A stretch of DNA of 64,000 nt from Letharia columbiana (lineage: Eukaryota > Ascomycota > Lecanoromycetes > Lecanorales > Parmeliaceae): the NCBI RefSeq assembly GCF_014066305.1, contig NW_023501069.1:222001-286000 (forward strand), written 5' to 3'. Shown here in pieces: positions 6,341-60,642 of this stretch. Made by a program: the position numbers and the translations under genes. Positions within the stretch are counted from its first letter, which is position 1; each line of letters begins with the position of its first letter. The notes below the pieces were generated by a model. It had not been told where the DNA came from. It saw nothing but the letters and a program-made list of their open reading frames with translations, and made no database searches.

Positions 6341-8246
6341 ATGCCTCAATCACCGTCACCATTTCCAACCTTCTCCCCTTGCCCTCAATCACCCGCCCCA
6401 ACACTTGGAGGATTGTCCGTCTCAGTACAGGCAGCATCAGAGGATACAAAGGATGCAAACGGACCAGACACGGTAGCCAGACAGAGACTTTCCTTTGCAG
6501 GGCCTGCAGCTAGCGCCTCGCTTCAAGACGTACGACGTGCCTCGATTCAGTTCGCCTCGGGCACCGGTACAGCTACGCGTACTGCAAATTCAAGGCCGAT
6601 TGCTTTGAAGCCGCAGCGGCGGCTATCATCGCCTCCACCGCCCTCGTAAGTTGTAGCATCTGATCTGTCGTTGAATTTCAAACGTCGATATGAAATGGCT
6701 TTGTTATCCTTTCTCCCTTGCAGCATGCATGATATTCGCTTAGTAGCACCGGATACTGTGGATCCTAAAAACCTCTTCCCGTATCCCATTGTAAAGACTG
6801 GTCCATCGATGGTAGCCGTCAATTCTCATCTTGAAAAGTCAAGAAAGTTGATTCAAATAGCACAATATGTCACAAGAAGCAATCACTATCAACAATAGCA
6901 CAGTGCAGCACATATTCAAGTTCCATCCTGAGCACCCATCTGCATCAGATTATCTTGAGAACATGATGCTGAATTGTTTCCTTGATGACAGTACTTATGA
7001 GTCCCGCGTCTCCTTCGACACCTTCGACAACAAAGATGCTACAGACCTTTCTTTCACTTTAGTCTCCAAGCATAAAGACTACGCCTATTCTCGTCGGTCT
7101 CGCACTTTCCTCTGTGGAACCGATCGTACGTACATTTCGGAGCTGGTTCTTCCTATTGGGTAGTGGATTTGAGTCGCAAGACATGTTTCGGGAGCAAGAA
7201 GACCTTTATACTCCCCAGACCTGTCTTGCAACTTCATTTCCCACCTCGAATAAACAATACTGACTCCGAAATCTGCGTAGAAAACGACTACTCGGAATTT
7301 GCTCTCGAATGGCTCGTTGAGGAGCTAGTGGAAGACGGCGACGAGATCGTCTGTCTTCGAGTTGTCGACAAAGATAGCAAGATTAGCAGCAATTTCAGCG
7401 TGGAGCAAGGTTTCTACAAAACTGAAGCTCGCAAGCTTCTCGAGCATATACAGGAAAAGAATGAAGAAGACAAAGCGATCAGCTTAGTTTTAGAATTCGC
7501 TGTGGGCAAGGTCCCGGAGACGATTCAACGCATGGTCCGTCTCTTCGTCTCCTCCCATCCCGTCGCTCTCGATATTTATACACTTGTTTCAGATCAAGAT
7601 CTACGCTCCAGCCTGCCTAATTGTTGGAACACGCGGCAAGTCTCTGGGTGGCATTCAAGGCCTGCTGCCTGGCTCCGTGAGCAAGTACTGTCTTCAGAAC
7701 TCGCCCGTTCCCGTAGTGGTGGTACGCCCTGAGGAAAAACGGGAGAAGAAGAAAAAGAAACGTCTTGCCGACCCCAGCCGCCAAAACTACTCTTCCATCT
7801 TAGACCAGACAATTGCTAGTGGCAGCGGAGCGTTCGAAAGTCTGGCTCGACAGTCTGGAGGTGAGGCGAGCGAAAATGAGGCAGCCGCGGTGGCGAAAGC
7901 AATCGGGCTGAACGAAGGCTCTGGGGCTTGGAAGGGGTTTAAGAAGGACGATGGAGATGGATCGCCGCTTATCAAGACCGTGAGCGGAAGGAGTGATGCT
8001 ACCAGCGAAGCAGAGAGCCCTAGCCCGACTGGCCCATTGGTACTGGATGAAGCTCTGGAGGACGTGCCCGAGATAGATGACTCGGAAATGTCACTGTTGA
8101 GCGATGCCGGTCAGAAACGGGAAGAGGCCGACGATGAAGAAGGCGCAGAGAGCAAGACATCTAAGGAAGTGGATCCTATCAATGACTCTACATTCAGTGG
8201 GCCTGAGGAAGCCGAGGCTTGTCAAGGCAACGAAAACGAAGTTTGA
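6341..8246 (+). CDS. Universal stress protein (UspA-type) family protein
   Basis: Proposed exons 6341-6645, 6992-7125, 7281-7534 and 7593-8246, about 448 aa. Seen: a Ser/Pro-rich N-terminus; then RVSFDTFDNKDATDLSFTLV, SRRSRTFLCGTD joined across the 7126 intron to QNDYSEFALEWLVEELV, and DGDEIVCLRVVDKDS; and the nucleotide-loop end CLIVGTRGKSLGGIQGLLPG with PVPVVVVRP. These are the marks of the fungal Usp family (ATP-binding alpha/beta fold; general stress role in the family). After the domain comes a Lys-rich patch and a long acidic, probably disordered C-terminal tail. Intron 3 has the donor GTCCGT. Intron 1 (346 bp) is unusually long and might hide an extra exon. Intron 2 is the introner-like element listed separately. 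The start at 6341 is the first ATG in this frame and is not otherwise fixed. Confidence 0.8.
7126..7280 (+). mobile_element. Introner-like element (intron 2 of the Usp gene)
   Basis: A 155-bp spliced intron that is homologous to the first intron of AAR2 at 59528-59744. Its first 17 bases, GTACGTACATTTCGGAG, are identical in the two, and the homology continues for about 75 bases (58 of 75 identical by hand alignment). The 3' ends also match. The last 17 bases, CTCCGAAATCTGCGTAG, are an imperfect inverted repeat of the first 17 (14 of 17), including a perfect 9-bp ATTTCGGAG/CTCCGAAAT pair. The branch point CTGAC overlaps the inner edge of the right repeat. Splicing joins CAA (Gln) in the conserved GTDQNDYSEF motif. 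Mobility is inferred from homology and the inverted ends. Confidence 0.65.
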
Positions 8247-44182: not shown

Positions 44183-46504
44183 ACAGGGTCTTGAAGCGAA
44201 TGTGCACCAAGAGTGACAGTTGCTACGGTCCAAAACGCCAAAGCAAGCAGAGATTACAAGGATGGACCAAAGTTGGTACTTTTTCGAACACCCTGCAAAG
44301 ATCGTCACTCAACAAGAAGTGCCAAATCGGTTGGGGTGAAAACTCTGCATGTGCATGGAAGAGGACCTATCAACAAATGAGACTGCAACTCTTGCTGGCT
44401 TGACTGGTTTGTTGCTTGTCGACAGTCAAGAAAGAGCGAGCCATAAGCGATGAGTATTACATTCTTCGACCACAGCTTATCGCTGTATATTGTAATATAT
44501 TTGTACATCATTGTCACAAGCAATAGGAACTGTATACCTGCTTGATGTCGTGTCCTATGCTGAAGGCTTGGTCCCGTTGTGCTGGCCCATCCCTCAAGCT
44601 AAGAGCGCTGGAGTTGTGGGTCGAGGACGACACGAGGCAATCAGCATGACTCCACCAAAGACTCGGAATTTTTCTATTCATTTTCGGAGCAAGCTTTTCT
44701 AATTTGGGACCACTTTGCGAGTTGCAACACCCGTTCCTGGACCTGAAGGTCCATAGTCGCCCTTCGAGCTGTCTCACTGTATGGGTTCTACCTCGAAAAA
44801 CTCGCGAAAGAATGGGGGTGAAGGCTGATAATGTCCTTTCGAGCTGTTTCAACGTTGGGGCTCTACTCCGGAATGGTCTTATTGTTCGGGTTTCTACCCT
44901 GGAATCTCCTTGGACGGAGGGAACGATGGAACCATACCGCTTTTGGCCAGGCTTCTTGGGACAGCAGAGCAAAAACTGGTGGTTATCTATGGTGGAGTAG
45001 TGCGATGTGAATGTGTGAGCCTTGATGGTGGACGGTTTCGCTCCAGACTGAGAGCATCGAGTATCCGTTTTGCTAGTAGGAGACTGCGAGATTCCGCGGT
45101 CGAGCTGAAAAGTATCAATCGTCAAAAGCTAAAGCAAGAGGAAGTTCCCCAGGATGGGAGGTCTCGTAGTTGCAACTGATGGTGCGATGATAGAATTGGT
45201 TTCGAGTGGATTGTGGATACAGATATGTGCGTGGTGGCGTATTGGCAGGAACACGTTTAGGTATCCGTACCCAGGACAGCTTTGAAAAGGATTGCTGTTG
45301 TTGTTGGCGGCAGATGTTCGCTGGGTGAGAGACGGGGCGAGACGGTGATGATTCGCAGAAGCGCGCTATCACGTGATTCTTGGCATTTGGAGAAGGGCTA
45401 CTTCTAGACTACACCAACCGGCGCCCCTCTTCCCTCCCAACCTTTTTCTGCCTTATTCTGCCTTACATCTTTGCTCGTCAACGTCTTCGCTATTATTGGG
45501 GGAGAGGCTTTTCTTTTCTTTGTACTCTCGCTTCGTCGACGTAGCTTAAACACTTGAAGAATGAATGGTAGAGCGTTTGTACCGCCCTGAGCAGCGGGCT
45601 TGCTTGTCGAATGTCGGCGTTGATCAGAAGCGGGAGGGTGAATTCGCGACATGGGGATAGAAATGTAATTACAAGTACAGCATAAAGTACGGTAGCTGTC
45701 AAAGATCAAAGTGGCATCCCTGTTGATGCAAAGCATAGATTACTCAATATTAACATGCCGGTCTTCTCTTCTTCCTTTTCTTTCTTCTATACATACAGGT
45801 ACCTACAAGCTGTTCCGAGGTCCCGAGCGTCGTTCTGGAAGCGCCCTGTTTTGAAGCTAACCGGGTTTTGAATCTGACTTCTTCCAATCACAATGGCGAG
45901 CGCCCTGATTCAATGCAAGCTCTTAGAATCTGCATGAGTAGCCTCAAAATGTACTCCAGTCTCCAGAGTCCAGACACCGAATCCTGTTTGATCTCTACGC
46001 GCTGACCCTCTTGGTACGAGGTAACTGTTGACTCTAAGAAGAATTCTCCACCCTCCTCCTCCTCCTCCTCCTCCTCCTCCTCCCCCCACCCCCCACCCGT
46101 TCCTGTTAATGACCCTGATTCCAGCCTCTTCTTCTTGCAATAATCTTCTAGGTTTCCTTTCTCCTGGGTCCTTGCATGTCTAACATCTCGCTTGAGATTC
46201 GTCATCTTAGCTGCATTTACTTTGGTGCGGCCACTTTTCGTTGCCGAAGCGCTCGTATTTCAAATTGATCCTCCGGACTTCCTTCCATGCAAATTGCCGA
46301 TCCTACGTGCCAAAGTACATAATAATCCATCTTCGACTTCATCTTGATCCATCCGTGCTTATAGCCTCCGGGTGCTTATATCCTCCGGGCGAAGGGACAG
46401 AGGTCCTCGCCGAAGACGCTTACACAACAAGTCTCGGAGGAATCAATCACTTACAGCAGCTCTCAACGAAGAGCTGACGCCGATCGGAGATTGTGTCGGC
46501 AGCA
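44183..46504. other. Spacer between kynureninase and NoxR
   Basis: About 2.3 kb. A 203-codon minus frame (44514-45125) has no recognisable domain. There are imperfect short direct repeats at 44760-44910, an AGGTACC element at 45797 and a CCT microsatellite (46052-46083). The part just upstream of 46505 is likely the NoxR promoter and leader. Confidence 0.45.
46052..46083. repeat. Microsatellite (CCT)n
   Basis: About ten uninterrupted CCT units followed by C-rich sequence, roughly 420 bp upstream of the NoxR start codon. Confidence 0.9.
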
Positions 46505-59126: not shown

Positions 59127-60642
59127 ATGGACACCACTTTGACAGCAGCCGTCCTCCTCCTCGGACTTCCGCCGGGAATCCTTTGCGGTATCGACCTCCT
59201 CTCCTTCACCACCACCGCCCAGTTTCGAGGCTTAAAAGATTTGCCCCTAGGATGGCATTTTGTCTTCACTAGCGAAACAACATCTCTCTCCGTCCGCGAT
59301 GGCTTCTGGTTCCATGTCCCTACTGCAGTCACAGGTTCCATCCCTCTGATCGTCCGCAAATGGGACACTTCCGGCGGCTCGCTACTTCCCTCAGACCCTG
59401 ATAGCTTCCGTGTCCGCCTGCCTCTTCTATGGGAGAGGAACCTTTCGCCTTATCGACAGTCCGCTGACAAAGAAACGAAGGCTGAAACGGGGGACTGGGC
59501 GAGTTTGACGGAGCATGTGAGCCCGAGGTACGTACATTTCGGAGTAATCCTTCCTGTTTGGTAGTAAATTGGGGCTAGAATCCAGGTTTCGGGAGCAGGA
59601 AGCTCCTTCACTCCCCTAGAAGTTTCCCGCTCCTTAGGTGCAATGCCGCGGATCGGCAGCGAAAAGTTCTTTCTGCTCTTCAAATGTGTCTCGTTTCTCG
59701 GTTTACTACCCAAGTGAACAACACTAATTCCGAAACTTGCGTAGGTTGCTAGGACATCTTACGCAAAATGAAGACTGGAAGATCACGACGGCCAGCTGTG
59801 CGAAGGAAGACAGGGATGAGATACCTGGCCTCACTGCTGAGGATTTTGGAGACGAAGAGAGGGAGTTGGGTATGTTGGGTATTGATCTCAAACGGACGTG
59901 GAGGAAGGGCGCAATAGGAAGAGAAAGGACAGAGGCCGCTCTAGATTCAAGTACTTCTCCCATTCATGCTGTCCTATGAGTCGTCAGACATATCTAGAGA
60001 GTGTTCCGCTCCTAAGACATGTCTCGCGACTCAGAATGCCTCCCGAAATAGTAATGCTAACTCCGGAATCATCAAGGCTGGGCATTAAATGATGTTGTGG
60101 AGCGATGGCAACCCCGGAACCAGAAAGACAAGGGGGAGTGGGGCAGTGTGGTGCTTGGGCAGATGGAAGCCTGCTTCCTGATGGTGTTGACGGTAGCAAA
60201 TTACTCCTGCCTGGAAGAGTGGAAGCGCTGCGTCGGGCTGGTCTTGACGTGCAAACGGGCCGTAAGGGAAAAGGAGGAGTGGTTTGGAACGTTTTTGGTG
60301 CTGTTGAGGAGGCAGATGGAGAGGTGCGAGGATGTTGAGGGAGGCTTGTTTGATTTGAGGGACGAAGGAGGAGCGTATCTGAAGAGTCTTCTGAAAGGGT
60401 TTAAGATGACGCTGGGAAAGGTGTTTGAAGACGCAGAGGGAGAGCAAGTAAGGAAGGAAATGGAGGAGCTAGAGACTTTTATGAAGAGCGAGTATGGGTG
60501 GGAACTAGGGGATGAGTTTGTTAGGAGAGGCATGTTGGAATTGGAGGATGGGGAGCAGGTCGAGATGGAGATGGAGGAGATGGATGGAGAGGATGAGAGG
60601 GGCGAATATGCTCCCGTTGTAGTTGATCTAGCCGATCCCTGA
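59127..60642 (+). CDS. AAR2: U5 snRNP assembly factor Aar2
   Basis: Exons 59127-59527, 59745-59950 and 60077-60642, 390 aa. Aar2 binds Prp8 during U5 snRNP maturation and is released before splicing. Seen: LLGLPPGILCGIDLLSFTTT and QFRGLKDLPLGWHFVFTSET, the N-terminal beta-rich Aar2 signature; then LLGHLTQNEDWKITTASC; and the helical C-terminal domain DSSWALNDVVERW, LGQMEACFLMVLTVANYSCL, EEWKRCVGLVLTC. The acidic tail is rich in Glu and Met. Intron 1 (217 bp) is the second introner-like element. Intron 2 (126 bp) shares the same 3' signature. Without splicing, both would introduce stops, and joins restore conserved residues (HVSPR-LLGHL; DSSWAL). An irony noted: a spliceosome factor hosts the presumptive intron mobile elements. 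Confidence 0.88.
59528..59744 (+). mobile_element. Introner-like element (intron 1 of AAR2)
   Basis: A 217-bp intron homologous to the one at 7126-7280. It shares the opening GTACGTACATTTCGGAG, the internal GGTTTCGGGAGCA block and the end TTCCGAAACTTGCGTAG. Its last 17 bases pair with the first 17 at 13 positions. It is 62 bases longer than the other copy, the extra sequence lying in the middle. It is inserted between AG and G of an Arg codon; the left junction reads AG|GT and so does the right one, a possible short target duplication. Confidence 0.65.
59951..60076 (+). other. AAR2 intron 2, 3' end like the introner elements
   Basis: A 126-bp intron whose end, GCTAACTCCGGAATCATCAAG reduced to the core CTAACTCCGGAAT, closely matches CTGACTCCGAAAT of the Usp intron. 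The 5' end shares only GTAC. It may be an old, diverged copy. Confidence 0.3.

What the first reader, a model, noticed from the sequence alone, without database searches (positions are those of the whole stretch)
7126..7280. Introner-like element: this Usp intron is homologous to an intron of the unrelated AAR2 gene
Seen: the introns at 7126-7280 and 59528-59744 start with the same 17 bases (GTACGTACATTTCGGAG), align at about 58 of the first 75 positions and share the end pattern A-C-T-R-A-Y-TCCGAAA ... TGCGTAG. Host genes (universal stress protein, AAR2) are unrelated, and flanking exons show no similarity. Introns of unrelated genes normally share only splice motifs. Known: introner(-like) elements, near-identical introns that multiply in a genome, occur in some fungi and algae. 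Inferred: this genome hosts a family of them, and these two are diverged copies.
Basis: partly seen in the sequence, partly recalled or inferred. Interest (0 to 1): 0.9.

Follow-up and report, generated by a model that had tools for sequence, protein, structure and literature searches.

The report
Lichen introner with inherited exon flanks
The two look-alike introns belong to a family of self-multiplying hairpin introns scattered through the genome of a lichen-type fungus, and each branch of the family tends to sit between the same two exon letters, a clue to how such introns copy themselves.

Summary
The Usp intron (7126-7280) and the AAR2 intron (59528-59744) belong to a large introner family in a 52-Mb ascomycete genome whose closest named AAR2 relatives are Parmeliaceae (lichen formers). 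I recovered 106 end-to-end copies (about 104 distinct insertions); two terminal motifs suggest about 180 well-kept copies. The copies sit in unrelated genes, mostly in sense. The consensus folds as an end-to-end hairpin (-65 kcal/mol), but copies lose pairing at random, so the symmetry belongs to the copying source, not to splicing. Of nine alignable junctions, eight are gapless against known proteins, and C|A sites cannot hold a target-site duplication.

The new point: the single exon base on each side follows the intron's lineage (C|A, G|A, G|C, G|G, A|T); position -2 follows it barely, the others not. Clades with identical splice ends differ in flank, and no single intron column predicts it. 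Plain reverse splicing has no memory of donor exons, and ordinary transposition leaves duplications. I favour copying or end-joining from a hairpin donor that tends to match one donor exon base per side. The flank pattern is well supported; the mechanism is inferred. Fungal introners and symmetrical introns are already known.

The parts
7126..7280 (+). Introner copy (155 nt, subfamily C1) interrupting a Usp-domain gene; phase 1; flanks C|A
7126..7142 (+). 5' arm of the terminal inverted repeat (14 of 17 positions match the 3' arm); carries the 5' splice site
7264..7280 (+). 3' arm of the terminal inverted repeat; carries the 3' splice site. The branch-point-like CTGAC (motif recalled) overlaps its start at 7260-7264
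   Evidence: the branch point was not tested
7125..7125 (+). Exon base -1 (C), typical of subfamily C1
7281..7281 (+). Exon base +1 (A), typical of subfamily C1
6868..7125 (+). Usp host gene: coding sequence from an ATG to the intron
7281..7535 (+). Usp host gene: coding sequence after the intron (part)
59528..59744 (+). Introner copy (217 nt, AAR-type) in AAR2; phase 2; flanks G|G
59951..60076 (+). Decayed introner: second intron of AAR2; flanks A|G
59127..59527 (+). AAR2 exon 1
59745..59950 (+). AAR2 exon 2
60077..60642 (+). AAR2 exon 3 with stop codon
61246..61394 (-). Decayed introner in the gene for ribosomal protein uS11; splits a conserved His codon C|AT; flanks C|A
44682..44800 (+). 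Weak profile hit, possibly a much decayed copy; gene context not examined
   Evidence: E about 1e-4

Best explanation
A family of introners (mobile spliceosomal introns) of a Parmeliaceae-like lichen fungus. The source element is a 155-nt (or about 218-nt) GT-AG intron whose whole length folds back on itself. Shown: copies sit seamlessly in unrelated genes, mostly in sense; pairing of the two arms decays at random after insertion; the exon base at -1 and at +1 follows the element's lineage. Inferred: the new copy is not made by simple reverse splicing of the bare intron, nor by transposition with target-site duplication. It is made from a hairpin or cruciform form of the donor, in which the donor exon bases next to the two splice sites lie side by side. 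Template switching or end joining then favours a target dinucleotide equal to the donor's two flanking bases (one-base match on each side). Selection for correct splicing would keep the sense copies in exons. Odds by layer: introner family about 0.97; lineage-bound -1/+1 bases about 0.85; hairpin-donor one-base-match mechanism about 0.4.
For: Family. Sense and coding: exact excision gives an open frame of at least 100 nt on both sides in 57 of 81 copies against 22 of 81 on the antisense strand; strictly best offset in sense 51/16/2 for 0/1/2 nt, against 31/21/19 antisense; further family hits in the same locus 41 same orientation, 1 opposite. Seamless: gapless at the junction for Rab, phosphomannose isomerase, threonine synthase, glutathione reductase, Baeyer-Villiger-type monooxygenase, eIF2-alpha kinase, ABCG and uS11 (positions). 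Symmetry; random decay: observed paired cells 86.3%, shuffled mean 86.3%. Flanks: parsimony changes at -1 15 (shuffled 29.8, 0 of 2000 as low) and at +1 12 (29.1, 0 of 2000), while -5 to -3 and +2 to +5 do not differ from shuffles (77 of 106 copies used); closest pairs (84 pairs at 85% or more) match at -1 in 0.83 and +1 in 0.76, and in 0.20-0.36 elsewhere; copies with identical ends (GTACGTAC...TGCGTAG): C|A in 18 of 19 of clades C1+C2 and 0 of 8 of clades S3+A, p = 4e-6; no single intron column accounts for the flank.
Against: The match is not strict: the most alike pair tested, L023/L039 (97%), differs at +1, and L003/L004 (92%) differ at both, so a physically carried base is unlikely and a preference is what is seen. 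Position -2 is borderline (48 of 2000 shuffles). The strong sense and exon bias is also what RNA-level models predict. C|A insertions are mostly phase 1 (11 of 13), which this model does not explain. No empty/filled site pair was found, splicing itself was not observed, and no copying intermediate is known. The clades were drawn by eye on the tree after the labels were seen (the test does not depend on them).
Confidence: 0.5

Rival explanations
1. Spliceosomal reverse splicing: the excised intron RNA is spliced back into another transcript (or into R-loop DNA), reverse transcribed and recombined into the genome.
For: Seamless insertion, sense and exon bias, no target-site duplication possible at C|A sites. 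It is the reading that PMC9860276 reports for fungal introners (passages seen).
Against: A bare intron has no memory of donor exons, yet -1 and +1 follow lineage and differ between clades with identical splice ends, with no single intron column that would act as a guide. It gives no role to the end-to-end symmetry of the source (a point made in PMC8469720, passages seen).
Confidence: 0.2
2. Template switching of a reverse transcriptase between a mature mRNA (target) and an unspliced hairpin pre-mRNA (donor), with one-base matches at both jumps, followed by conversion of the gene by the cDNA.
For: Keeps donor exon bases in play, explains sense and exon bias and the use of a hairpin.
Against: Back-to-back introners with no or one exon base between them (L010, L067) are easier to make at unspliced DNA or RNA. 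No reverse transcriptase was looked for. One-base matches are short for such jumps (recalled).
Confidence: 0.15
3. A non-autonomous DNA transposon (MITE-like) moved by a transposase whose terminal inverted repeats carry the splice sites.
For: Terminal inverted repeats; many introner families elsewhere have TIRs (72 of 177) and/or TSDs (49 of 130) (PMC9860276, passages).
Against: No target-site duplication: at C|A sites none is possible with seamless insertion (reasoned). No autonomous partner was met among the fetched loci, but none was searched for directly. Lineage-specific dinucleotides would need a changing transposase.
Confidence: 0.12
4. The flank pattern reflects selection for splicing or shared ancestry of the sites rather than the insertion process.
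For: Splicing can depend on exon bases next to the splice sites (general knowledge).
Against: Clades with identical splice ends have different flanks; C at -1 is not a usual splicing preference (recalled); bases beyond +/-1 are unrelated and duplicated sites were removed.
Confidence: 0.08

Closest known systems
Fungal introner-like elements (ILEs) of Dothideomycetes (Collemare et al. 2015, PMC4457414: first quarter of the text read; original description van der Burgt et al. 2012, recalled and as cited there)
   Same: Near-alike U2-type introns in unrelated genes, several subfamilies per genome, decay towards ordinary introns, stable predicted structure (as quoted in PMC8469720).
   Different: Different class of fungi (AAR2 relatives are Lecanoromycetes). 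The lineage-bound -1/+1 bases were not among the passages I saw; an AG/GY preference is what PMC8469720 reports for ILEs. Sequences were not compared.
Symmetrical sister (stw)introns of Hypoxylaceae (Fekete et al. 2021, PMC8469720: abstract, passages and section 3.6 read)
   Same: Long terminal inverted repeats, seamless insertion (42 of 43 in their coding set), sense only, symmetry lost in diverged copies, no tandem duplication.
   Different: Theirs are tens of copies, many of them D1,2 stwintrons; section 3.6 states that no pattern was obvious in the bordering exons. Here there are about 104 distinct insertions and a flank pattern that shows only when subfamilies are separated. The TTTCTAGAAA palindrome they report is not in the consensus sequences printed.
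DNA-transposon-type introners of algae and other protists (Gozashti et al. 2022, PMC9860276: passages read)
   Same: Introns that multiply, with terminal inverted repeats in many families.
   Different: Many of those have target-site duplications; none fits here at C|A sites. That paper says that ascomycete families have neither TIRs nor TSDs; this ascomycete-like family has clear TIRs.

Membership tests
Introner / introner-like element | Similar introns at many sites in unrelated genes of one genome | tested here: met
   106 end-to-end copies; host families differ
Introner / introner-like element | Edges of similarity coincide with splice sites, flanking exons unrelated | tested here: met
   Most of the 40 matches run 1-155; flanks at +/-2 to +/-8 match at 0.20-0.36 even in the closest pairs. 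GT at the start and AG at the end were required when copies were accepted.
Introner / introner-like element | Copies are really spliced | not testable with these tools
   No RNA reads; only reading-frame and homology evidence
Introner / introner-like element | Recent gain: sites empty in relatives or paralogues | not testable with these tools
   No related fungal genome DNA available; the duplicated places found (L008/L025, L034/L110, L096/L097) are all filled
DNA-transposon-type introner | Terminal inverted repeats | tested here: met
   14 of 17 terminal positions in the Usp copy; end-to-end symmetry of the consensus
DNA-transposon-type introner | Target-site duplication | tested here: not met
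   With seamless insertion a duplication needs G at -1 or G at +1; C|A sites have neither (reasoning)
Fungal ILE | Stable predicted secondary structure | tested here: met
   Usp copy z = -6.05, AAR2 copy z = -4.05; subfamily consensus z -2.4 to -8.7
Hypoxylaceae sister stwintron | Donor-disrupted nested intron (D1,2) | not tested
   Internal splice sites were not scanned for; back-to-back pairs such as L010 are a different arrangement

The most novel reading that the evidence does not exclude
Introner copying carries or checks a one-nucleotide memory of the donor exon on each side. The mobile unit or its homology check then reaches one base beyond the splice sites, so the copying step is a hairpin-templated nucleic-acid joining reaction and not spliceosomal reverse splicing; the same hidden pattern may be found in other fungal introners once they are split into subfamilies.
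Probability: 0.45. Interest if true: 0.85.

Novelty: new variant of a known kind. Interest (0 to 1): 0.66.

Why it matters
How fungal introners insert has no agreed answer: reverse splicing, end joining and transposition have all been proposed. A per-lineage flank base is a direct footprint of the joining step, it can be looked for in any introner genome already sequenced, and pooled logos would hide it. It would also extend introners to lichen-forming fungi: a full-text search for 'introner' together with 'lichen' listed two papers, neither about lichen introners by title and abstract, and 'lichen' does not occur in the text of PMC9860276.

Tried and rejected
Target-site duplications, including shifted boundaries and boundaries one or two bases inside the inverted repeat: rejected for C|A sites by reasoning.

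An internal guide base that sets the flank: no alignment column carries more than 0.40 of 1.48 bits (-1) or 0.53 of 1.55 bits (+1).

A fold kept by selection for splicing: RNAalifold found no consensus pair, and compensatory cells do not exceed shuffles (27 against a mean of 24.1; 124 of 500 as high). In the slid controls 28.7 to 47.8% of cells pair, as expected for a structure drawn from the consensus, so that control says little.

Second 5' splice site GTAC|GTAC: retaining 4 nt is not favoured.

Whether flank bases were already there or were replaced on insertion: in Rab Gln, monooxygenase Gln, kinase Asp and uS11 His both bases are forced by a conserved residue, and one base is forced in phosphomannose isomerase, threonine synthase and ABCG. 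Selection could give the same result at conserved residues, so replacement is not excluded.

Invertase (L021): the alignment has a one-residue length difference two residues past the junction, so it is the one of nine alignable junctions that is not clearly seamless. Amidase (L035): no solved relative at 1e-3. AAR2 residue at the first junction: variable in relatives, uninformative.

Relatives by DNA: 0 hits of the 17-mer in viral contigs; 3 hits in genome contigs, each a single match in a bacterial record and not followed up. A 20-kb sample from two arbitrarily chosen places elsewhere in the genome holds no family hit, so density varies and the window's five hits must not be scaled up. No direct search for a transposase or reverse transcriptase was made. 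The covariance model R1 had no base pair and was not used further.

Full report
What is there. The window is G000:C34:222001-286000 of a 52.2-Mb genome in 161 contigs. So this is most likely a lichen-forming ascomycete of or near that family.

The family. The Usp intron and the AAR2 intron share their ends and differ in the middle: the 155-nt and about 218-nt types have the same first 17 and last 22 consensus bases. Genome searches led to fetched loci in which profile searches found 153 non-overlapping places and 106 end-to-end copies (94 of the short type, 12 of the long type), after two places with odd ends were set aside and identical copies merged. Two further pairs are the same insertion in duplicated sequence, so about 104 insertions are distinct. 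The two terminal motifs (40 and 67 hits, 15 shared) give a Lincoln-Petersen figure of 179 for well-kept copies, probably a lower bound because decayed copies escape both motifs. Search outputs are capped, so all counts are minima.

Introns of genes. For 81 copies with long enough flanks, exact excision leaves an open frame of at least 100 nt on both sides in 57, against 22 on the antisense strand; the strictly best offset in sense is 0 for 51, 1 for 16 and 2 for 2 copies, while antisense shows 31, 21 and 19. The other 24 of 81 could not be assigned (short exons, UTRs, misplaced 3' ends or non-coding places), so copies between genes are not excluded; L036 lies 99 nt past a stop codon of an open frame on the same strand. 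A codon model favoured sense in 57 of 72. Other family hits in the same locus have the same orientation in 41 of 42 cases. Solved-structure alignments are gapless at the junction for eight genes: Rab, phosphomannose isomerase, threonine synthase, glutathione reductase, a Baeyer-Villiger-type monooxygenase, an eIF2-alpha kinase, an ABCG transporter and, in the window, uS11 (positions). Invertase is unclear and one query, an amidase, found no relative.

Hairpin source, decaying copies. The 53-copy consensus pairs with itself from position 2 to 154, -65.1 kcal/mol. Subfamily consensus energies are -59.1, -65.3, -64.6, -51.8 and -63.0, each lower than the mean of its copies (-47.9, -52.5, -49.2, -43.4, -55.3), though single copies in two groups fold better than their consensus. 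The window copies fold far better than dinucleotide shuffles (z -6.05 and -4.05). Yet across 53 copies the share of paired cells equals that of shuffled partners (86.3% and 86.3%), and RNAalifold finds no conserved pair. The arms thus mutate independently after insertion, which fits a role in copying and not in splicing; PMC8469720 argued the same from decay of symmetry in Hypoxylon (passages).

The flank footprint. Pooled, the exon base at -1 is mostly G or C and at +1 mostly A. Split by lineage, it becomes nearly fixed: C1 C|A 13 of 14, C2 C|A 6 of 6, S3 G|A 9 of 11, S2 G|C 8 of 10, AAR-type G|G 9 of 12, a small clade A|T 3 of 3 (groups drawn by eye on the tree). An objective test on 77 of the 106 copies (left out: the second members of the two duplicate pairs, copies with shifted 3' ends, and copies of 60 bits or less) counts 15 changes at -1 and 12 at +1 against 29.8 and 29.1 in shuffles, 0 of 2000 as low; -2 is borderline (48 of 2000) and -5 to -3 and +2 to +5 are like shuffles; a tree from the inner sequence alone gives the same for the six single positions tested on it, -3 to +3. 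In 84 pairs at 85% identity or more the match is 0.83 at -1, 0.76 at +1 and 0.20-0.36 elsewhere. Copies with identical ends still differ by clade (18 of 19 against 0 of 8 C|A), so the splice sites do not dictate the flank, and no single intron column does. The rule is a strong preference, not absolute: L023/L039 and L003/L004 break it.

Were the bases there before? In four junctions both bases belong to a conserved codon (Gln in Rab and in the monooxygenase, Asp in the kinase, His in uS11), which suggests choice of a matching target; but purifying selection would leave the same picture if bases were replaced.

Mechanism. C|A sites exclude a target-site duplication, since a seamless duplication needs G at -1 or +1. 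Bare reverse splicing cannot know the donor's exons. A hairpin or cruciform brings the two donor exon bases side by side, so that a copy made by template switching, or a piece cut out one base beyond the junction and joined at a break, would prefer a target with the same two bases. This is inference; the hairpin itself and the flank pattern are what is shown. Back-to-back introners (L010 with no exon base between, L067 with one; L014 and L077 similar but decayed) fit insertion at a G|G made by an exon end and an intron start, that is, at unspliced DNA or RNA. Sense and exon bias remains compatible with RNA-level models, and the phase-1 excess at C|A sites (11 of 13 against 28% expected, p = 4e-5) is unexplained.

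Relation to known things. Introners in fungi are known (PMC4457414, PMC9860276), and so are symmetrical introns in an ascomycete family (PMC8469720). PMC9860276 states that ascomycete introners lack TIRs and TSDs; this family has TIRs and no detectable TSD. Searches for introner with lichen, with insertion site and flanking, with reverse splicing and target site duplication, and with microhomology listed no paper that by title and abstract describes lichen introners or lineage-bound flanks; the library holds open-licence papers only, so this is weak evidence of novelty. Verdict: a real introner family, a new variant of a known kind, with an insertion footprint that makes the copying mechanism testable.

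Noticed in passing
window 59127-60642: AAR2, itself a splicing factor (name from Pfam; role recalled), carries two introners of this family, one intact and one decayed.
   Followed up: yes
window 61394-61246 (minus): A ribosomal protein uS11 gene carries a decayed introner in a conserved His codon, again C|A.
   Followed up: yes
L010:1501-1877: A long-type and a short-type introner stand back to back with no exon base between; L067 has one base between, and L014 and L077 look similar but decayed.
   Followed up: partly
C|A copies in L001-L111: Insertions between C and A are in codon phase 1 in 11 of 13 scorable copies, far above the 28% expected from coding sequence.
   Followed up: partly
L008 and L025: A 2.5-kb stretch with an introner is present twice at 97.5% identity (contigs C109 and C77), both copies filled; cause not examined.
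   Followed up: no
L013:1405-1688: A long-type introner seems to carry a tandem repeat of its own 3' half (profile positions 128-218 hit a second time).
   Followed up: no
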